Source: Echinarachnius parma (taxonomy: Eukaryota; Echinodermata; Echinoidea; Clypeasteroida; Echinarachniidae). From it: DNA of 64,000 nucleotides. The notes below the pieces were generated by a model. It was not told the DNA's origin, ran no database searches, and saw nothing but the letters and a program-made list of their open reading frames with translations. A program made the translations under genes and the position numbers. This document shows positions 1,644 to 62,100 of the stretch, piece after piece (positions within the stretch are counted from its first letter, which is position 1; the number at the start of each line of letters is the position of its first letter). The stretch is from the NCBI GenBank assembly GCA_037951105.1, contig JBAMJV010003289.1, positions 62,001-126,000 on the forward strand, written 5' to 3'.

Positions 1644-1962
1644 TACCCAGCTAGCCACCTGACGTTGGGCCGATGTCGGAATTTGGTTGCCGGATGTCGG
1701 CATATCGCCGTTGGCTCGAGGTTAAAATGTCCGCCAGCCTAACATCGTCACGACGTCATTTTTGTGATATATTGGCATAAGGTCATTTTCCGACAATGGC
1801 CCAACATCATGTCATGAGATGATGTTGGGCCATTGTCGGAAAATGACGTTATGCCAATATATCACAAAAATGACGTCGTGACGATGTTGAGCCAACGGCG
1901 ATATGCCGACATCCGGCAACCAAATTCCGACATCGGCCCAACGTCAGGTGGCTAGCTGGGTA
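1644..1962. mobile_element. Palindromic MITE with about 155-bp arms
   Basis: TACCCAGCTAGCCACCTGAC at the left end is matched by its reverse complement at the right end. The two halves pair along almost the whole length around a centre near 1815. The ends are TA-CCCAG and CTGGG-TA, which suggests a TA target duplication of Tc1/mariner type. The left arm has a short extra segment (about 1720-1735) absent from the right arm. There is no coding capacity. The RNA or single strand would form a very long hairpin. Confidence 0.85.
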
Positions 1963-27547: not shown

Positions 27548-30500
27548 CTGCACAAGGCAAACACATCAAAGGGGTATTATGATAATAATAATAATAATAA
27601 CGTTTTATTCACCTAGGGTAGCCACTTTAGTGACGAACACTGCTCTTCCAGGACATATATATTATCAAAATTACGTTTACACCATGAGCGACTCTTCTAG
27701 CGCCGCCCTCAACAGGAGCGTCTCGCCGCCCCCCGTTCAAACCATGAGCGAATATACTAGTCCCGTCCTCAACATGAGCGTCTCTCCGCGCCCCGTTCAC
27801 ACCATGAGCGACTCTCCGAGCCCCGTTCACAATAGGAACGACCCTTCGAGCCCTGTTCACACCTTGAGCGACTCTCAGAGCCCACAGCGTGATGGTGACA
27901 AGTCGCGATATGTCACAGCCACGGTACACGCACAAGACGACGCCTAGTTATCTGCACAACCCCGGTAACTATTCATAAATGTATACTTTCGAGTCGAAAT
28001 TATCCGAAATAGCAACAGCGTTAATATACTTTTGTTTTGTTTTGTGTGTGTATAACTAACGTTCCGATGCAGTGAAATTCATTATGTAGACTATACAGAT
28101 AACAAAATAAAAGAATGTATAGCGAACTCGGTGAATGAGTTCATTTTCTTTGTTCGATGTCGATTCACATGCATGCCATGAATCCTGTTTATTGCGGCAC
28201 CAGCAACTAAAATGGCCAGGACAACAGGAGGATCCATAGCGGACTCGCGTTCACACCATGGAGCATATCACGTATATTCTAATCGCGATCCTATCGGGCT
28301 ATATGCCAATTATTAAGTTATGAGCCTAATTATGAGTTTGAATTGCTCATAAAATGTTTATTTTGTAATTAATTAGCATTTTTGCTTTGTGTGGCATGTG
28401 TTTATATACTACATGATCTTATTGGCAATGAATTTTAAGACAACAGGAGGATCCATAGCGGACTCGCGTTCACACCATGGAGCATATCACGTATATTCTA
28501 ATCGCGATCCTATCGGGCTATATGCCAATTATTAAGCCATGAGCCTAATTAAGAGTTTGAATTGCTCATAAAATGTTTATTTTGTAATTAATTAGTATTT
28601 TTGCTTTTTGTGGCATGTGTTTATATACTACATGATCTTATTGGCAATGAATTTTAAGACAACAGGAGGATCCATAGCGGACTCGCGTTCACACCATGGA
28701 GCATATCACGTATATTCTAATCGCGATCCTATCGGGCTATACTTAGTATTGTTTTTTGTTTGTTTGTCAAACAAGTTTTATTATATCGTATGACATTATT
28801 TATGTGTTACATGCAACGCATCTTCCACCCTCTCGGAGAAAGACGTTTTTTTTTTTAGTCGCAATCATGTTTTTGAGACTGTTTATGTTTATTCTCAAAG
28901 CTAGATTGTTTTATTTTTTAATGATGAATGGAAAAGGCTCCACTGTTATAAGTACACTTAATATACAAATGCTTTGTTGTAATGTGATGTATTTTCATAA
29001 TTTCTGTACATTTAATTTGATACTTTCAAAATGGTATTTTAACGTTTTGATGTGTGTGTTGTGTTTAAGGTCTAACATGGGTGAAACGACAAACGCAAAT
29101 GAATTCATTTGACATTTATTCTATGAATGTTCGAGGCCTGTGCGATCGAACTAAACGTATGCATGTTTTTGCTTGGCTGCGCGACAAAAATGCTAGTATT
29201 TTTTGTTTTACAAGAAACTCATTCATGTCCACAAGATGAAGCAAAATGGAAGGAAGACTGGGGAGGTGGCGCGCTTTATTTTTCACACGGCGCTACGAAT
29301 AGTAGAGGAGTCGCTATACTATTTAAAGATGTACCACATATTACTATTAATAAATGTTATCACGATGACGATGGGAGATTGCTTATTTTGGATGTGGTTC
29401 TTGGGAATCAAAAAATCACTCTTACAAATGTGTATGGGCCAAATATTGATGATCCGGTTCTTTTTATTAATATTCTTCAACAATTTGCAAATTTTGATTG
29501 TGAATCTATAATTTGGTGTGGAGATTTTAATTGCGTGCTAGATATTAAATTAGACAAAAAGGGTGGTCGCCCCATTACCCATGGACATTGTGTTAATAGT
29601 ATTAAAGAAATAATAGATGAATATAACTTGATTGATATATGGAGATTTAAAAATGCGAATGTGTCTATGTTTACTTGGCATACAAAAGACATTTTTTGTC
29701 GTTTAGATTTTTTTCTTATTTCAAGTAATTTGATTGCACAAGTTGATAAATGCGTTATATCGTGTGGGTTTAAAACGGACCATTCCGCTATAATATTATC
29801 TTTAACTACAGTGAATGAGGCTAGAGGAAGAGGTTTTTGGAAATTTAATACTTCGCTCTTGCAGGATGGAAAATATGTTAAATTGATACGAAGTTGTATA
29901 CAAGAAAATTTATTGTATTATTCTCAAATATTGGATCCTAACACCTTTTGGGATTTTTTAAAATGTCAAATGAGATCCATATCAATACGATATTCTATTG
30001 ATCTTTCAAAGACTAAACAAAATTAGAAACGAGTTTAGTTGAAAAATTAAACAAACTTGAATTGGATTACGCTGAAAATCCAACTGAAATTGTATTAGAT
30101 CAAATTAAATTTTGTAGAGAAGATTTAGATATTTTATATAAAAAGAAAGTTGACGGCGCTTTTATAAGATCTAGATCCAATTGGATTGAACATGGTGAAA
30201 AAAATACACGTTATTTTTTAAATTTAGAAAGAAGAAACCAAAGATTGAAATGATGAAAAAGGGACAAATTCAACAGTCCAATAAAGACATTTTAAAAACT
30301 GCTAAAGAGTATTATGACAAATTGTATACTTCCAATAACCCTTCACTAGCTAATTTTGTAGAAATTTTACCTCAAGACTGTCAGAATGTTGAATTGTCAT
30401 TGAACTCCAAAGAAAAGTGTGAAGGTTTGTTAACATTGAATGAATGTTTAAATACACTTAAAACTATGAAAAATAATAAAACACCTGGTACTGATGGGTT

Positions 30501-33500
30501 TCCTTGTGAATTTTATAAATTCTTTTTTAAAGATTTAGGCGTCTTATTATTAAAAACTTTTAATTATTCATTTCATTGTGGTAAAATGTCCCTTGATCAA
30601 AGAAGAGCCATAATAAATCTAATTCCAAAGAAAAATCAAGACCCCTTATTTTTGAAAAATTGGAGACCCATTTCTATTTTAAATACTGATTATAAATTAT
30701 TGGCTAAATGCTTTATAGCACACAGGCTAAGAAATGTATTATCTGAAATTATAAGTTGTGACCAGACTGGGTTTATGAAAGGACGTTTTATTGGAGAAAA
30801 TATTCGTTTGGCTTTAGATATGATTGATTACCTTTTTATACAAATTTTTATGATATCCCCGGTTTTATGGTGCTAGTAGATATTGAAAAAGCTTTTGAAA
30901 AGCTAGAGTGGTCGTATATGTTTCAGGCATTAAAATATTTAAATTTTGGTGATGATTTTATATCCTGGATAAAACTGTTGTATAATGATATATATTCTTG
31001 TGTTATAAATAACGGCCATGCCTCTGAATTTTTTAACGTTACTTGTGGTGTTCGCCAAGGTTGCCCTTTAAGCCCATTGCTTTTTATTATTTGTAATGAA
31101 ATAATGAGTATTTGGATTAAGAGTGACACAAACATTCAAGGAATTGTGATTAATGATACAAATATAAAAATAAGCATGTACGCTGATGACACAACATTTT
31201 ATGTAAAGGACACTCACTCTTTGTCTAGAATTATATATATACTTGAAGTATTGAAAAGGTATTCAGGGTTAAATATAAATCGTAATAAATCAGAAATTAT
31301 AGCTCTTGGTTATTACAAAGCTAACCCCCCGGACGTAAACTTTACAGGATTGAAATATGCTAAAGGTCCATTTTATTTATTAGGCGTGCATTTTTCAATG
31401 AACTCAAATGATTTATATGAATTAAATTATGTGCCTAAATTACAAACTTTAAAACGAATTTTGGGAATATGGTCGATGAGAGACTTAACGCCAATGGGTA
31501 AAATTATTATTGTGAAATCATTTGCTATTTCCCAATTTATTTTTCTTTTATCAGTATTACCTAAGCCCCCTGATGAATTTATTCATGAAGTTGAATCGGT
31601 TATATACTCTTTTATTTGGAATCATAAACCAGATAAGATAAATCGGAAAACAATTATAGCAGATTATAATGAAGGGGGTTTGAAAATGTTACATTTACCA
31701 TCAATTATTATAGGACTCAGGATCGCATGGGTAATGAGATTGTTAAATACAGAAAATACAGGCAACTGGAAATGTTTTTTTGAATTTTATATGAGAAATT
31801 TAGGTAATGCCTTATTTTGGACTTGTAATTTAAAAAGTAAAGAGCAATTGATAGAAATTGATAACGCCTTTATAAAAGAAATTTTAGTAGCCTGGAGCGA
31901 TTTAACTTTTTCTGAGAACCCAAATGATAATTTTATTCATATTCAAGTAATATGGAATAATTCATGTATTCAAATAAATGGGAAGGTTGTTTTTAAGTCC
32001 GATTGGATAAATAATGGTGTAGTAAAATTGTTTCATTTATTAAATAAAGATGGGTCATTTTTGAGTTATGATGAATTTGTACAAAAATACCATATTCGTT
32101 GTAATTTTATGGAGTTGTATTCTGTTATATCCGCCATTCCTGTACAATGGAAACACATTATTAAAAATGCTCCCATTTCAAATATTAATCAGCATGAAGA
32201 TTTTATTAGTACGTTGAAAAAGAAAACAAAAATATGTAAATTTATTCATAAATTATGCATTGATCAAATAATTCAAATTCCAATTTCACAAACAAAATGG
32301 AACTCAATTTTATTGCACCCGATAATGGATTGGAAAGAAATGTATGCTATTCCTTTTAAATATGCGTTATCAATAAAATTGCGTTATTTTCAGTTTAGAA
32401 TATTACATAATATTCTTGGGGTAAATAAATATTTGAAATTGGTAGGCATATTAGATTCTGATCAATGTGATTTTTGTTTAAATGGTGTTGAATCAATCCC
32501 ACATTTGTTCTGGGACTGCCCTGTAACTCATCAATTTATATTACAATTTCAAGAACACACTTTAAATGACCAAATTATATTGACTATGAATTCATTTATA
32601 TTTGGAATTTCTGGAGGTAATTTCTGCCACTTGGATTTTGTTATTTTATACGCAAAATATTATATATTCTCTACAAAGTGTAAGAATGGTAAACTATCAT
32701 TTGAATTATTTAAGAAACAGTTGAAATATTATTATGACCTTGAACGAATAATTTATTTAAAACAAGACAAATTTGTTTTATTTCTTGATAAATGGAGAGA
32801 TGTACAATTAATTTGAAATGTATTATGATATGTATCATGTATATTACGTTATTGACATCACATACATTATTTTGTATTTTGTACTTACTATATTTCTGTT
32901 AACTTGCTTTGAGAATTTTGAATAAACTTTTATTTGAAAAAAAAAAAAAAAAAAAAAAAAATACGTTTTATTCTACAGAATGTATATATATTTTGTTTAC
33001 AACTAGGAGAAAATAGGAGCGGTATATCCATAGCAGGGGTGGCGCACATACTTTTCGCGTGGCTCTTAACATCCGGATTCGAACCTACGATCTCCTGTTC
33101 ATGATCATGATGGTATTAAAATATGATAAATACAATAATTTTCTGACAAGGTGGGGTCCATGGCCCTCCAAATTATGTATTATTATAATATCATACAAAT
33201 AGTAATAACATTAATTGGCAACTAAATGATTTTTGACAAAGCATAGTATGCAGTTGATCAAAAGGCCATGTTCGCATTAATTTTGTAGCCTGTGTAATTT
33301 GGAGGTATAAAAGTGAACTGAGACTTTCTAATAGAAAAAAGGTGATATCATATTAATTTGTATAATATATATTTACCAGATGTGGCAGAATGAGAGGATA
33401 GCGAAGTAGATACCCCAGCAGAATGCGGCTGGGATGCTGCAGACGGTTGTGCAGCACGAGTAGCAACAGTCCTTGCTCCAGTTGTACGTGTCGTAGCTCT

Positions 33501-36557: not shown

Positions 36558-39500
36558 GTGTGGGTGTGTGTGTGTGTGTGTGAGTGTGTGTGTGTGTGTG
36601 TGTGTAAGTGCGTGTGTGCGTTTGAATGCGGGTATGTGTGTACGCATGTAGTATGTATGGATGGGTGGTAGGAAATGTATGTGTGTGCATGTGCCTGTGC
36701 GTGTGTGCGTGGCAAATTGGAAAAATGCATTTAGCAAGTCACCAATTCAATAATATACGCTCGGTTTACTTTTCGTATTTCTTACCCGTAAACAAAATTA
36801 CCGATAATTGGAAAATCGAATGAGCGGATGCTACGCTCTGATGTTAGAAAAGATGAACATGGACGGAGAAGCATGCATTCGTCAGCACTACCAATATAGT
36901 ATAGCGTGGCGCAGGTTCTCTCCATTGGGGTTTTACATTTGCGTGTGTGTGTGTTTGTGTTTTATATTGCAATTTTCAGGTTTATTTTAAAGGCTCTATG
37001 GTAATCGTTATTGTATCATTCATTCATATGTAATTTATATTTAAATTTTGGGAGGAATAGAGGCATTTCGAAAAAAAAATGGTGTGTGAGTGTGACAAAC
37101 ATGAGGGTGACACAACATTGACTATTATTCCTTAGTTACCCCCCAGTTCTTCTTTTTATTTGTGGACACATGAGGGGGGAGGGGTTCCTACATTACATCT
37201 GGCCACTATATTTGGAAATCAAATCATTTATTAGTGTATTTATCTTCATGGGATACATGAAACACGTGTTTAACCATGCCTACTTTTACAACATGTAACG
37301 CATTATAATCGAAAGGATTCTATCATAAGGTATTGAAAAGGGTGCGGTTCGTTATTCCGAAGGTTCGTTATTCCGAAGGTTCGTTATTCCGAAGGTTCGT
37401 TATTCCGAACACGCAAATTTCCTATACCTGAGTGTTCGTTAATCCGAAAATGAAATAGGGTTCGTTAATCCGAACATTTGTTGCATTATTCCGAAGGTTC
37501 GTTATTCCGAAGGTTCGTTATTCCGAAGGTTCGTTATTCCGAAGGTTCGCTATTCCGAAGGTTCGCTATTCCTAAAATGAAATCGGGTTCGTTATTCCGA
37601 AGGTTCGTTATTCCGAAGGTCCGTTATTCCGAGAGTTCGTTATTCCGAAGGTTCGCTATTCCTAAAATGAAATCGGGTTCGTTAATCCGAAAATGAATTT
37701 GGGTTTGTTATAATGCTATAATTTCATATAAAGAGATAAAATAAACTTAAATGTTTGATTGGTCTGGCCAAGGGAGGGAAAGGGGGAGGGGTATGCTTAA
37801 TGCAGGCTGTAAATTAAATAAACAAAAAACAAACTATAGTGTTATAACAAGCCCGATTTAATTTTCGGAATAACGAACCCGATTTTATTTTCGGATCAAC
37901 GAACCTTCGGAATAACGAACCTTCGGAATAACGAACCCGATTTTATTTTCGGATCAACGAACCTTCGGAATAACGAACCTTCGGAATAACGAACCTTCGG
38001 AATAACGAACCTTCGGAATAACGAACCTTCGGAATAACGAACCTTCGGAATAACGAACCTTCGGAATAACGAACCTTCGGAATAACGAACCTTCGGAATA
38101 ACTGAACCTTCGGAATAACGAACCTTCGGAATAACGGACTGTAACCATTGAAAAGGTCGTTTTTTCTTTTAACTTTGTAAAATAATACAACATAACTTAT
38201 GGTAAATATAGCTTCAGGATATAACGGGCATGAGCGTGAGAGTTAGACTACAAAGCGACTGTTCTTTTTTTTTATGCATCATTTGAATCGTGTATGATTG
38301 TATCCGTGTGTTAAGAAATCACCAAATTGATGTCCATAGTATGGTAGCGGTGTGAAATTTGTTTACGGAATTAGAAAATGCATGTTCGAGTATTTTTAAG
38401 TGACTGTTCAAGTAAGGTCGTTCTACGTACTTCGTTTTAAACAATATGTATTCGTTGACCTTTTCCGGTGGAGCGAGATATTATTGTGTTCAGACCAGTT
38501 GCAAATTTAATACATTTTGCATACACTTGCTATTTGCTTCGTCGTAGCTATCTATCTATAGAACATGTTGAACAGAAGATGGTGCTAAACAAACAGTTAC
38601 GTAAAAAGACAATCACGTAAACCACGAGATAATGACTATACGTTGGTTGTCCGTTATTAAAGGGAGTGGCTACGTTGTACCAGGAAAATGGGAACCCTCA
38701 TTTCAATGGTTGTACGGAACTCTAAAAATGGTCTGTATTAAGTAGACTACTACAAATGTATGAAAAAAAAACAAGGTCAGGTACACTTGCATTCAATTTG
38801 AATCAAAGTAGAGACGTATTATCATACTTCATAGAAAACATCTAAATATGTATGTATAAGAGTTGTACTTTGCCACCTATAATATTGTTACATGAGGGTT
38901 GACATCATATTTTATTTAATGTCCATGACCTCCTGTTTTCCAGCTTCTCGCTCTTATATAGTAAAAACAAAAACACTAAATTTGTTATCAAACATTATGC
39001 AGGTACAGTAATAATTACCTTTACTTCCTATAGAATGTATACTATTTTCTTAGTTTGTAAAATGATATGTCTACAAAGTTATACACGCACTATAAAGGTA
39101 TATTGGTGAATGTGGACTATTAAAACATCCGTGGTGTATATTCAGAGATTTCATATACATATAGCAGAGTAGTTTGTGTGATTGTCAATATACATTTATA
39201 ACACACAAATTAATCTACTATTTAAAAAGGACGTTCTAAAGCCTCTTCTTTCAATTTCAGAACAGTCCTTTGGGTAGAGTATTGTCGCAGTGTCTCGAGT
39301 CCAACCTATAGTTCCCTAATGGGCTCGTATAAAATTGTATTTATCTTTTTGTATATAGACCAAATTACTTTTGCCCTAATTCCATGCAGATTGTTGAATG
39401 CACTAATTACCAAGTTATGTAGTTTACAATAATATGTCAGCGTACCATTTTCCATAATGACATATACGCAACTTTGCCTCCTACAGGTGCATAATCGAAT

Positions 39501-43805: not shown

Positions 43806-43856
<51 letters not shown>
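43806..43856. repeat. 51-base poly-G tract
   Basis: Fifty-one consecutive G. This can form stacked G-quadruplexes and is hard to sequence, so the length is uncertain. Confidence 0.95.
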
Positions 43857-55700: not shown

Positions 55701-58700
55701 TCCCATAAAGTTAAAAATTTCAGCCAAAGACAATATTTTATGATTTTGAGGCTCTAAGTACTAAAGACCCATCCCGACTTTACACCCATTCTCTGGGAGC
55801 CGGTCTCATATTAAGTCTTACAAGATGAAACAATGGAAGAGTTTTCAACTTTACAAAAAGAGGAATTGAGTGGGTATCAAATTTACTGTTTGTTAATATA
55901 CGTATGGCACGTTTCTGGAGCAAAAATAACTAATTAGTATGCACTTTGTATTGTACAGACTGTCCCAGAAAAAACGAAACCGGGTTTCATGGCAGAAATT
56001 TTCTGTCATAATGAATAATTTCTTTGATGATATATATATGTCTGAAAAGCTCTGTGTCTCTTCTTTCATTTGATGTACAACTTATGGCACATAATTCACG
56101 CAAGACTGAATTAGAACAATGGAAAGAGGTGTTACCAAAATTCGATTTGCGCGCAGAAATTGCAAGTTTGGGTGAGGTTTTGGGGTGAGTTTTAACGGTA
56201 GTAAACGTACTTATTTTGAGAAAAGACAAACACCTCATAAAAATACATAATTTTATCTTTTATATGACACCTCATGATTAAAAAATAAATGATTTATGCC
56301 AGAGAACGAGTACAATGAAATCATGCTTGATTCCAGCCCAAATGGGTAATATTCCTGATCTAGCCTGTTTCCCATGGTTTCCCTGATCCCCATGTTTGTG
56401 TAAATTCACTCATGCATCAAAGTCCATTGTCAGGAAAGGTGAGCGACTTCTTACTCAACTTTCACTCATTTGGGCAGAAATCAGGCATGGTTTCATTGTA
56501 CTCGTTCTCTGGCATAAATCATTAATTTTTTTAGCATGAGGTGTCATGTAAAAGATACAAATATGAACTTTCATGTGGTGTTTGTCCTTTTTAAAAATAG
56601 GTACGTTTACAACCCTTAAAACTCACCCAAACTTAAAATTTATGCGTGCAAATGGAATATTGGTAACACCACTTCCCATTGTTCTAATTCAGTCATGCTT
56701 GAATTATGTGCCATAAGTTGTACATCAAATGAAAGAAGAGACACAGAGCTTTTCAGACATATATATATCATCAATGAAATTATTCATTATGACAGAAAAT
56801 TTCTGCCATGAAACCCGGTTTCGTTTTATCTGAGACACGGTGTATTTCCCCATATTTCATTACAATAATTCAAATGAGGTAATATAACCACATTATAAAT
56901 ATAAAACAATATCTTGGGAGGTAGAAAGGCTTTTAGTTCATACAACACACCTATACTTCTTGATAGTTTAGAGGAAATATTAAAGGGGACCACCAGGCAA
57001 AGAACAACACATATAATTCTATGTTTGGGTACCGTTTTGTGATATCAAATAAACCGAACACAAAAAGTAAGTACCCCCCTAAACAATTGACCATAATTTC
57101 ATAACCAAGAATCGTTTCAAGATTTCGTCTTGCCAATATATCCGTATGGTAGTTAAGAAAACAATGTGTAAAAATAAGAGGTAACCATTAATTCATGGTT
57201 GAGTGAGCACATATTACAGAGAAAATAGTCATATTTCAAAATTCGCAAAAGTATTATCATCATTACAAATGATTGAGAATTGGAAAATTTAAAAATGCAC
57301 TGTTTTACAATTGCAATTAATGCATTTTACCACATGTGCCATAACAAAATCAAAATGAATGGAATATCAAACAGCATTGTTTCATAAACCATAATCAATG
57401 CATTCAGCCACATGTGCTGTTTCACAACAATGTATATAGGCACGCGCAATGCCTTGTGACTTTTGAATTGGGCCATTTTGTCTTTAATCTGTGCTCATTC
57501 AGCCATAAAGTGATGAATATCTCTGATTTTCACACATATCGAACATAACAATTGTGCCAATATTGTGATTAGATGAAATTCTGAAACAATTATCGGTTAT
57601 GAAATTATGAGCAGTTGTTTAAGGGAGTAGTTACTTTTTGTGTTCGGTAAATATACCCAACATTTTGAAAAGGGTTGTGTAATTCATAAATAATGCAATT
57701 AGTTACCAACACTTACGGAACCATTATTATTTCATGGTTCCGTATGCGATTTGCGACTTTTTAACTCTTGATTCATAATAGACATTTATATAAGTAAATT
57801 TACGTTTTTTATGGGAATACAATACAACAGTGTCATTGGCAAAAAGTAAAAACTTTAACAATTTTGAGGTATTAATCATATATATCATTTACATACATCA
57901 AAAACAAAAGTGGACCTAGAACAGAACCTTTTGGCACATCAATGCCTACATTTAAATGTAAATACTATATTCTTCAAAAGTTTTCTTGTTTAGATGTAAT
58001 CCAAATTGTTTCACTCCACAGACGATAGACCAATTGTTGGTCACCCTTGCCAGCATGGGTTTTGACCTGGACAGAGGACAAGCAGCCGTCCAGGCAGGAA
58101 AGCTGACCGTCCATCAAGCCGTTGAGTGGTGAGTTTCACCAATGGTCTAGTACGTGATTATGTCACAAGTAGGCTCTGTCCTCACATTCACAGGTTAATT
58201 TCGAGTTCACAGGTCGTGTGTGCCAAATTGGTCAATCGGGTCAAATCCACCAAATCGGTGGCATTGTGCTCAACTGAGACAGTTATGAATGTGGGGGTGG
58301 GGCCTGACCGTGATGTCATCATGTTGGTCTAGTCCTACAAGAAATAGATACAGTGGGGTCAAATTAACCTGGTGCCAAGGTTAACAACTTGCTCAGGTTA
58401 GAAAATTACTCTTATTCCCCGGTAGCCCATTTAGGCAAAATTAAAGAAAAATCTTCTAATTTTGGAAAACGTAAACAGAAATTGGGCTGCCCTCGTACAA
58501 AGAATTTTTGTTTGAATAGTCATTGATATTTGGTGTTAATTTTGAAAAAATATACATCATTGTGATTTATGAAATGTTTTGAGACTTGCCTCAAATTAGT
58601 TTTGCATCGAGCTTAGGGGGCTCATGATTTGTATTATTATTATTGTTTAAAAAAAAATATAAATGGCTCTTTTTCTTGGCCTTTAAATCACTCTTTTATT

Positions 58701-59122: not shown

Positions 59123-59153
<31 letters not shown>

Positions 59154-62100
59154 GGGGGGGGACGACGAGCTATGAATCTCAACAATCAATTGAACAAGTA
59201 AGTGGAAGTATGGTGCCAAAACTGAAGGTAAAATGCTTTATACTGTATATTATTTCTACAATTTTACACATTGAAAGTTTCATTTTCTGTTTATATATTT
59301 GTCAGGCTATTACAAGGTGGCGATAGCAGAGAGACAATACCATCAAGATCCACTCCTACACTCTCACTAAGACCTTCATCTCAGGTATGCTTCTATCATA
59401 GTTGTAATATAAATCAACATCTGCAAAATCTTGACACATGTAAAGTCAAGCTTTTTGAACTTGAAGCAGAATAACTCTAGACAACATCAATAAGCTTGCA
59501 TTTATTTAATATCTTCTGTTAGTTCAATAAGTTTTAAAGATTATTAACTCACCAGGAATTAATTTCAGTCGTTAACTACCCACCTACGTAACACAGAAAA
59601 CCTAAACAGCAGTATAATTTTGAATCGATCTTTCTGAGCATGTAGCCATGTATACAAAATAGACAATAAGATTTTATAACCATTTTGAAAAAGTGCCTTA
59701 TTTTTGCAGTACAGTTTATCACCATGTCTCCGCTTGTGTCAATTTCTTCTCCCTCTATGTTTAACCTTTCCCATGAAAGGTTATTCAAGAGGAATATTAC
59801 TGATCTTTTAAAGAGGCAATTTTTATTGAAGCTGTACCTAGATGATTCTATTGCCAGTGATATAATGTTTTTCTCGCTAATTTGTTTTCTATTTTAATTG
59901 GTCTTGATTTGATAGACCCCATCACCACGACCAGCGGCTGAGGAGCAGAACTACCTTCCTTACAGCCTTCCCCCCGTCTCCATCCCGTCAGAATCCCCCT
60001 CTCAGACCCCTGCACCCGATCTTCCCCCTTCCGACCAACTGCCCCCTGGAAGTAGTGAGGATGCCAAGGTGTCCAGCAGGTTTTCCCTGTCCGAAAAGAA
60101 GAGGCAGGATAAGGCACGGTGGGAGCGAGAGCAGCGTGAGGAACTGGCTGCCAAGTTCAAAGAGGAGAGGATGCGAAAGAAGAAGGTACAGCCTTTCACC
60201 TTTTCTTCACTGACTTAAACAATTCATAGTCCTTTATCTTGCAATTGGGGTGGGGGAGGGGGGTGGGGGGGGGGGGGGGGGTGGGAACATTGTTTCAATT
60301 TTATAATAATTATTCCACATTAAAGCAATCAATTAGTTGAGTGAACAATAAATGCATGTATAAATAGTGAAAACGCACATTGGCCCAGGGCAATTAAATA
60401 ATAATGTTTTGATTGTTATAGCTCACCAAATAAGAATCATCTCCCAGCACTTTACAATTATTACCCTGGTCACAAAATGCCTTCCGGCTACATAATTTCT
60501 CATCCAGTTCACTGTAAAACAAATTTTCATGTTGCTTTTTCTATTGGGGTGAGCTTGATATACCAGAGACAGAACATTATCTTCCCTGTGTACAAAACAT
60601 TGCCCCTCTCCAACAGGCCCACACCAAGGTGCTGCAGGATATTGAAGATGATCGCAAAGGCAAGCATCCCACTGAGAGTACAGCTGCACTCTCTGAGGCT
60701 ACATCTGGGTCATCTTCAGATAAAAGTGAGCCGAGCGGCGGCACACCCTCTGTAGACTCAACGAGCACAGAACCCTCCGTACCGTCACCTGCTGCAGCGG
60801 TACACACAGATGTTGCACCTGTAATCGTTGCAGCTGGTGCATCTACTGCTCCCTCTGGGCCTGTGCCACAAGTCGATGCAATGCCAACAGGGCAGGAAAA
60901 GAAGAAGGAAGAAGAAGTTGAGAAGCCAAAACCCCCCACAATTTGCACTCTTCAGGTAAGATTACATGTACATGGATTTATCGACTGTTAACCGGTTGCT
61001 TACGGGAATCGGATTGGCTATGTACAAAGTCTGTGGGGATTTCAGAATCTTGAGGTGAAGGGGGTTTATTCCAAATTGGTGAAAAGGTTTAAGTAACTTG
61101 ACCCTGATATAATCGTGCACATCTAAAGAAATTCATTTGAGTGGTGGTGTAATGTTTTTTGTTGTTGCAAGACAGCTATACAATTTGACAAAGATTTTAT
61201 TTTACTTTTGAGTGACAGTATGTCATGATGACATGGTGGACCTTTTACGAGGAAATTAATATTTTTTGCAGTTGCATTATAAATTTGATGAAATAATCGT
61301 GCACAATTAGGAATACATTTTTTTTAAATGTCTGCATTTCTTTTAAATTCTTTAGGTTTGAATATATTTTTTCCAAATTAACAAAATTGCAATTTAATAA
61401 TTTTGAAGAAAAATTACTGTATAAAAGAACAAAACATTTTTGGAAACAAGAATTTAATCATGATTCTAAACATATGTTAACCGTGTACTGCAATTTGATA
61501 TAAGCACTGGACTAGAATTCTGTGTATTTCTAAAAATAGTGACATGTCACCATAAAAAGAGGTTATTGGTTGACCTGTTTTCATAATTCTTTTATTTTTT
61601 CTCAAACAAATGGCATTACTCCATGGGAGTGCTTTAATTACATTTCTAGCTTGTGTTTCAGCTTGTATATAGAACAAACTAGTAATGTTTTTCTTTGATT
61701 ATCAACAATGGTTGGCTGAAACCTAATGTCAGAGCCAATTTTATTGATGGGTTAAATATATATAGTTAACCTTTTCACTATGTACTGCACTATTTAATAC
61801 ATCCATTTAAAGGCTTTTGTCTTATATATAGTGTCTAGATGGACAAATGCGCTCACAGTATAGATGAACAATTACTGTTCTAATTTTTATTCTAACGTTC
61901 TAATATGACTGGCAGATTCGGCTTCCCTCTGGCCAGCACTTGAGGGAGAAGTTCTCCTCTGATGCCAGGTTGGATGAAGTTGTTGCCAAGATACGACAGC
62001 AGCAGCCTGGCCTTGGTGATGGTGTAGAGCTATTGCAGGTGATTATTATGTTCAAAAGCTTTATCTGATTGGGATAGCACATGATCTTGAATAATTCCTT

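What the first reader, a model, noticed from the sequence alone, without database searches (positions are those of the whole stretch)
37332..38156. Foldback-like element built from inverted arrays of a 16-bp repeat
GGTTCGTTATTCCGAA arrays in opposite directions flank a unique centre, and a perfect 10-bp direct repeat (ATTGAAAAGG) brackets the whole. This has the architecture of Foldback elements in a repeat usually read as a simple minisatellite. The unit itself is nearly palindromic (TTCG-N6-CGAA).
Basis: partly seen in the sequence, partly recalled or inferred. Interest (0 to 1): 0.7.

Follow-up and report, generated by a model that had tools for sequence, protein, structure and literature searches.

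The report
Short foldback-type DNA transposon copy
This looks like one copy of a small 'foldback' jumping gene in an animal-like genome, with long mirrored ends built from a 16-letter repeat and a short duplication of host DNA on both sides; such elements are known, though this copy was not matched to a named family.

Summary
Two arrays of GGTTCGTTATTCCGAA in strictly opposite orientation (18 plus-strand units left, 16 minus-strand units right; no other match with up to 2 mismatches to the core in 64 kb) flank a centre of about 106 bp. A perfect 10-bp direct repeat, ATTGAAAAGG, brackets the whole (37332-37341, 38147-38156). A shared 10-mer in 16-bp stretches occurs in 23 of 200,000 random pairs. 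Both arms follow the same order (16-mers outside, 26-mers with an A-rich tail inside, then a shared degenerate end), so they look like one ancestral terminal inverted repeat, not two independent minisatellites. No open frame within the element exceeds 82 codons. Best reading: a non-autonomous foldback DNA transposon, moved in trans by an unidentified transposase, the repeats probably serving as multiple binding sites (inferred). The 8-10-bp duplication fits Mutator/Phantom-type foldbacks (Tm1, Tetris) but does not prove the superfamily; likeness of the unit to Tm1's repeat is at chance level. The family-level test (other copies, empty sites, transposase-bearing relative) could not be done: the own-genome search was unanswered nine times and the other collections used are viral, plasmid, phage or prokaryotic. 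Ordinary kind, one copy.

The parts
37332..37341 (+). Left copy of the putative target-site duplication ATTGAAAAGG (8-10 bp; ATTGAAAA if the tips are taken in register)
   Evidence: Sequence; only shared boundary word of 6 or more bases; chance 23 of 200,000
37340..37345 (+). Left tip, GGGTGC (or GTGC from 37342), not the same as the right tip
   Evidence: Sequence
37346..37409 (+). Left arm, outer array: 4 exact 16-bp units
37410..37495 (+). Left arm, irregular stretch: 24-bp sequence (37410-37433) absent from the right arm and found once in the window, two TTAATCC units, one degenerate unit
37496..37691 (+). Left arm, 90-bp duplicated block of 16-mers and 26-mers, then a TTAATCC unit
   Evidence: Tandem repeat, period 90, 2.2 copies, 95% matches
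37692..37724 (+). Left arm, inner end: A-rich tail and degenerate unit running into non-unit sequence shared with the right arm
   Evidence: Inverted pair 37618-37724 / 37831-37937, 85% complementary; alignment
37725..37830 (.). Centre, 106 bp, without a second copy in the window; holds a purine-rich stretch (37776-37787) one mismatch from Tm1's motif D
   Evidence: Distance between arms; self-comparison
37831..37963 (-). Right arm, inner end: degenerate unit, three 26-mers and two 16-mers
37964..38139 (-). Right arm, outer array of eleven 16/17-bp units
38140..38146 (-). Right tip (GGTTACA on the minus strand)
   Evidence: Sequence
38147..38156 (+). Right copy of the putative target-site duplication ATTGAAAAGG
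   Evidence: Sequence

Best explanation
A single copy of a non-autonomous, foldback-type cut-and-paste DNA transposon of about 805 bp. Shown: two long inverted arms (about 380 and 310 bp) built of 16-bp and 26-bp tandem units in opposite orientation, a short centre, no frame over 82 codons, and a perfect 8-10-bp direct repeat abutting both ends. Inferred: a transposase encoded by a relative elsewhere in the genome binds the repeated units in both arms, pairs the ends, cuts at the tips and inserts the element at a staggered cut of 8-10 bp, whose repair leaves the duplication; the arrays have since grown and shrunk independently in each arm by slippage or unequal exchange. The superfamily is most likely Mutator/MULE (Phantom-like), judged only from the size of the duplication and from known relatives.
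For: Strict orientation switch, 18 plus then 16 minus units, no further match in the window. Perfect direct repeat next to the tips, improbable by chance, and the only shared boundary word of 6 or more bases. Both arms have the same order of modules, with tails of the type AAAATGAAAT (3 of 4 left) and AAAATAAAAT (2 of 3 right) and a shared inner end identical at 20 of 24 positions. The single strand folds back on itself: -304.8 kcal/mol against -109.1 (sd 5.6) for 20 shuffles, which any such inverted repeat would do. Tm1 (PMC3169594; abstract and passages) has the same plan: asymmetric 7-bp tips, arms of a ~14-bp tandem motif whose copy number differs between arms, 8-10-bp duplications in 45 of 53 complete elements. 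The one stretch of the window within one mismatch of Tm1's motif D lies in this element's centre (37776-37787). [quoted passage not shown] passages).
Against: One copy only: no empty site, no second copy, no transposase. The tips are alike at only 8 of 12 positions, so the exact ends and duplication length are uncertain. The unit's likeness to Tm1's motif C is at chance level (2177 of 5000 shuffled units score as well). The motif-D match was looked for after the fact, 17 of 100 shuffled windows hold at least one, and it lies in the centre, not at the inner end of an arm followed by a unit as in Tm1. The first ~10 bases of the shared inner end resemble a unit start, so its control (16 of 20,000) is too favourable. 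A 99-codon open frame (37943-38242, minus) runs from the right array into the flank; its only Pfam hits are 11 and 15 residues long and are taken as chance.
Confidence: 0.85

Rival explanations
1. An ordinary minisatellite of which one part was inverted or copied as a palindrome by breakage or template switching, so that arrays face each other; the 10-bp direct repeat is coincidence.
For: The arrays clearly expand in place (90-bp duplication left; 58-bp spacing of 26-mers right).
Against: Does not predict a perfect direct repeat abutting both ends (23 of 200,000 random pairs). A palindromic copy could explain the common order of modules in the arms, but not the direct repeat.
Confidence: 0.07
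2. A foldback-type element of another superfamily (P/Galileo-like, hAT or other), not Mutator: same mechanism, different transposase. This is a sub-reading of the best explanation, so the odds overlap.
For: Foldback structure occurs in different superfamilies (PMC4079207 and PMC3169594, passages); an 8-bp duplication, which puts the tips in register, is also usual for hAT elements (recalled, no call).
Against: Galileo duplications are 7 bp (PMC3573991, passage); most foldbacks are said to belong to Mutator (PMC4079207, passage). No transposase was seen either way.
Confidence: 0.35
3. A composite history: a short inverted-repeat transposon (MITE) whose ends later grew minisatellites, or a larger element that lost its transposase gene and kept the arms. 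Also overlaps with the best explanation.
For: The centre is only about 106 bp and the element has no frame over 82 codons; other MITE-like inverted repeats are in the window.
Against: No copy with plain ends or with a transposase is available to test it.
Confidence: 0.3

Closest known systems
Tm1 Mutator/Foldback family of root-knot nematodes (PMC3169594; abstract and passages seen)
   Same: Arms of short tandem units with different copy number in the two arms, asymmetric short tips, 8-10-bp duplications, non-coding copies; a purine-rich stretch one mismatch from motif D
   Different: Unit is 16 bp, not ~14, and no more like Tm1's motif C than shuffled units are; the purine-rich stretch is single and lies in the centre; Tm1 has copies with a predicted transposase
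Tetris, Drosophila virilis (PMC4079207; passages and section 10 seen)
   Same: Foldback architecture with tandem-repeat outer domain, inner domain, middle without apparent coding capacity, 8-10-bp duplications, autonomous copy not found
   Different: Tetris units are about 220 bp; arms up to 1,735 bp, with an external flanking domain
Sea urchin TU elements
   Same: From memory only: foldback elements with arms of short (about 15-bp) tandem repeats and 8-bp duplications; PMC4079207 lists the sea urchin among hosts of foldbacks
   Different: No TU sequence was on hand, so no comparison was made
Galileo (Drosophila, P superfamily; PMC3688188 and PMC3573991, passages seen)
   Same: Long, internally repetitive arms; transposase domain binds sites in the repeats; arms change length independently
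   Different: 7-bp duplications; much longer arms, with repeats of about 210 bp in the F group

Membership tests
Foldback-type transposon (structural class) | Long terminal inverted repeats containing tandem direct repeats | tested here: met
Foldback-type transposon (structural class) | Target-site duplication abutting both ends | tested here: met
   ATTGAAAAGG, 10 of 10 identical; chance 23 of 200,000
Foldback-type transposon (structural class) | Dispersed copies at unrelated sites | not testable with these tools
   Own-genome search unanswered; one copy in the window
Foldback-type transposon (structural class) | Empty site without the element | not testable with these tools
   Joined flanks match only themselves in the window; no relative genome available
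Mutator/MULE superfamily (Phantom) | Duplication of about 9 bp (8-10 in Tm1) | tested here: met
   8-10 bp; compatible, not specific
Mutator/MULE superfamily (Phantom) | MULE transposase in an autonomous relative | not testable with these tools
   No DNA-transposase family in the 26 ORFs scanned of 53 with 95 or more codons; relatives not available
Tm1 family | Motif C tandem unit | tested here: not met
   Best local score reached by 2177 of 5000 shuffled units
Tm1 family | Purine-rich motif D at the inner end of the arms, followed by a motif C unit | tested here: inconclusive
   One match with 1 mismatch in the window, at 37776-37787 in the centre; 17 of 100 shuffles have at least one; position and single copy differ from Tm1
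Sea urchin TU family | TU arm sequence | not tested
   No TU sequence on hand; literature searches listed PMC4079207, and one search also a midge survey (PMC8504770, listing only)

The most novel reading that the evidence does not exclude
A foldback family not yet described, in which near-palindromic 16-bp units form a multivalent transposase-binding array that is kept uniform across both arms (by hairpin-mediated gene conversion or by selection for binding), while the non-unit parts of the arms drift. Support is slight: 14-base cores are exact in 10 of 18 left and 12 of 16 right units, whereas the shared inner end is identical at 20 of 24 positions.
Probability: 0.2. Interest if true: 0.4.

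Novelty: new member of a known kind. Interest (0 to 1): 0.22.

Why it matters
It shows that what a repeat finder lists as separate tandem arrays is most likely one mobile element, and adds a compact example of the link between foldback arms and tandem repeats. Whether the repeats of foldback and Phantom elements act as transposase-binding sites was called untested in PMC3688188 (2013; passage); a compact element with a 16-bp unit would be a convenient substrate once its transposase is known.

Tried and rejected
Exact-pattern scans for the arrays in viral contigs and prokaryote genome contigs: 0 stretches each. Distant BLAST against plasmids and phages: no match. These collections are not of animals, so the misses say nothing about copy number.

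Text search for the unit (both strands, 14 bases) in the held papers: 0 papers. Supplements and repeat databases were not searched, so this does not show that the family is undescribed. Six further literature searches gave the four papers of which I read passages (PMC4079207, PMC3169594, PMC3688188, PMC3573991); the other papers listed were seen in the listing only.

Likeness of the unit to Tm1 motif C looked promising by eye and was rejected after shuffling (2177 of 5000). A likeness of the tips to Tm1's A1/A2 motifs was considered and not used, because the orientation of A2 is not clear from the passages seen.

My first control for the direct repeat (78 of 200,000) included pairs of nearly overlapping stretches; it was repeated without them (23 of 200,000).

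Protein search for relatives of the LINE reverse transcriptase in viral contigs, to place the organism: 10 stretches matched a pattern, none confirmed. Rfam at gathering scores: nothing. Pfam hits of the frame overlapping the right array to Leader_Erm (E 1.1e-05, above its cut-off, 11 residues) and CBP_BcsR are taken as chance in a frame that overlaps the repeats.

Empty-site search inside the window: the joined flanks match only themselves.

Full report
WHAT IS THERE. The stretch 37332-38156 reads as described. Tandem Repeats Finder lists it as separate arrays: period 16 at 37346-37662, period 90 at 37496-37691, period 16 at 37890-38136, plus period-26 rows. A scan for the 14-base core with up to 2 mismatches gives 34 matches, 0.47 expected, all inside the finding; the 18 left ones are plus, the 16 right ones minus. 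The exact core does not occur elsewhere in the window on either strand, and not in the wrong orientation within either arm.

ONE INVERTED REPEAT, NOT TWO ARRAYS. Read from outside to centre, the left arm is: tip, four 16-mers, a 24-bp stretch that is absent from the right arm and occurs once in the window, two TTAATCC units and a degenerate unit, 16-mers, then 16-mers mixed with 26-mers (16-mer plus A-rich tail), then a degenerate unit and non-unit sequence. The right arm, reverse-complemented, is: tip, eleven 16/17-mers, then two 16-mers and three 26-mers, then the same degenerate unit and non-unit sequence. The inner end GGGTTTGTTATAATGCTATAATTT / GGGCTTGTTATAACACTATAGTTT is identical at 20 of 24 positions, and 16 of 20,000 random window stretches align as well; its first ten bases resemble a unit start, so this control is too favourable. 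The tails lean arm-specific: AAAATGAAAT in 3 of 4 left, AAAATAAAAT in 2 of 3 right. So the arms share ancestry and order, but each array has changed on its own, by a 90-bp duplication left and a 58-bp spacing of 26-mers right.

ENDS. ATTGAAAAGG lies at 37332-37341 and 38147-38156. In random pairs of 16-bp stretches at least 500 bp apart, a shared 8-, 9- or 10-mer is found in 402, 121 and 23 of 200,000. An earlier run without that distance rule gave 479, 162 and 78 of 200,000; 25-bp pairs gave 186, 41 and 9 of 20,000. It is the only direct word of 6 or more bases shared by the boundary stretches of the element. Three other inverted repeats of the window treated in the same way show no shared word of 8 or more bases that abuts both ends: 1644-1962 has GGTGGCTA, 36 bp outside on the left and inside the arm on the right; 55954-56844 has the 6-base TGTATT at its ends; 57053-57648 has a 7-base word that lies inside the right arm. 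If the duplication is 10 bp, the tips are GTGCGGTTCG and GGTTACAGTCCG, two bases out of register. If it is 8 bp (ATTGAAAA), the tips are GGGTGCGGTTCG and GGTTACAGTCCG, in register and alike at 8 of 12 positions, and the extra GG on the right is a coincidence of about 1 in 16, or 1 in 30 at the window's G content of 0.182. I therefore give 8-10 bp.

FOLDING AND CODING. As single-stranded DNA the element (37340-38146) folds at -304.8 kcal/mol against -109.1, sd 5.6, for 20 shuffles, as any such inverted repeat must; it is no separate evidence of function. The longest open frame within the element is 82 codons; one of 99 codons overlaps the right array and the flank. No DNA-transposase family was found in the 26 ORFs scanned against Pfam, of the 53 with 95 or more codons in the window.

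MECHANISM. Inferred from anatomy and relatives: insertion by a transposase supplied in trans, at a staggered cut of 8-10 bp, with the tandem units as multiple binding sites. For Galileo, binding of the transposase's THAP domain to sites in the arm repeats was shown; for foldback and Phantom elements it is called untested (PMC3688188, passages). Independent length change of the two arms is described for Galileo (PMC3573991, passages).

COMPARISON. The plan matches Tm1 (PMC3169594; abstract and passages) and Tetris (PMC4079207; passages and section 10). Tm1's tandem unit is not related by the test made. Tm1's purine-rich motif D has one match with one mismatch in the whole window, and it lies in this element's centre (37776-37787); 17 of 100 shuffled windows hold at least one such match, the comparison was made after the fact, and in Tm1 the motif sits at the inner end of the arms, so it is a hint only. 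Sea urchin TU elements, from memory, are a close structural parallel, but their sequence was not on hand. It works like a foldback transposon; membership in the structural class is met on the two features that one copy allows; membership in Mutator is open.

HOST. The window has two exon-like pieces of cytochrome P450 (the solved chains nearest to the first piece are CYP2R1 and CYP17) and a LINE with endonuclease and reverse transcriptase domains, so the genome is eukaryotic and probably animal (inference). The organism was not identified.

LIMITS. One copy only. The own-genome search was unanswered at every try, and the other collections used are viral, plasmid, phage or prokaryotic.

Noticed in passing
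window 55954-56844: Long inverted repeat (arms 233 nt, 92% complementary, plus an inner pair of 168 nt, 87%) with tips TACAGACTGTCCCAG... and TACACCGTGTCTCAG..., looking by eye like a Tc1/mariner-type non-autonomous element with TA ends.
   Followed up: partly
window 1644-1962: Nested palindrome: outer arms of 74 nt, 100% complementary, and inner arms of 74 nt, 97%, with no spacer; no shared word abutting both ends.
   Followed up: partly
window 57053-57648: Inverted repeat of 188-nt arms, 73% complementary, with tips ACCGAACACAAAAAGTAA; an old MITE-like element by eye.
   Followed up: partly
window 29127-32816: LINE with endonuclease, reverse transcriptase and zf-RVT domains, in three open frames, with a 25-A tract at 32937-32961.
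   Followed up: no
window 43806-43856: Uninterrupted run of 51 G, and further G runs at 59137-59161 (25) and 60247-60285 (39, imperfect).
   Followed up: no
window 28220-28741: 2.4 copies of a 219-bp repeat, 98% matches, just before the LINE.
   Followed up: no
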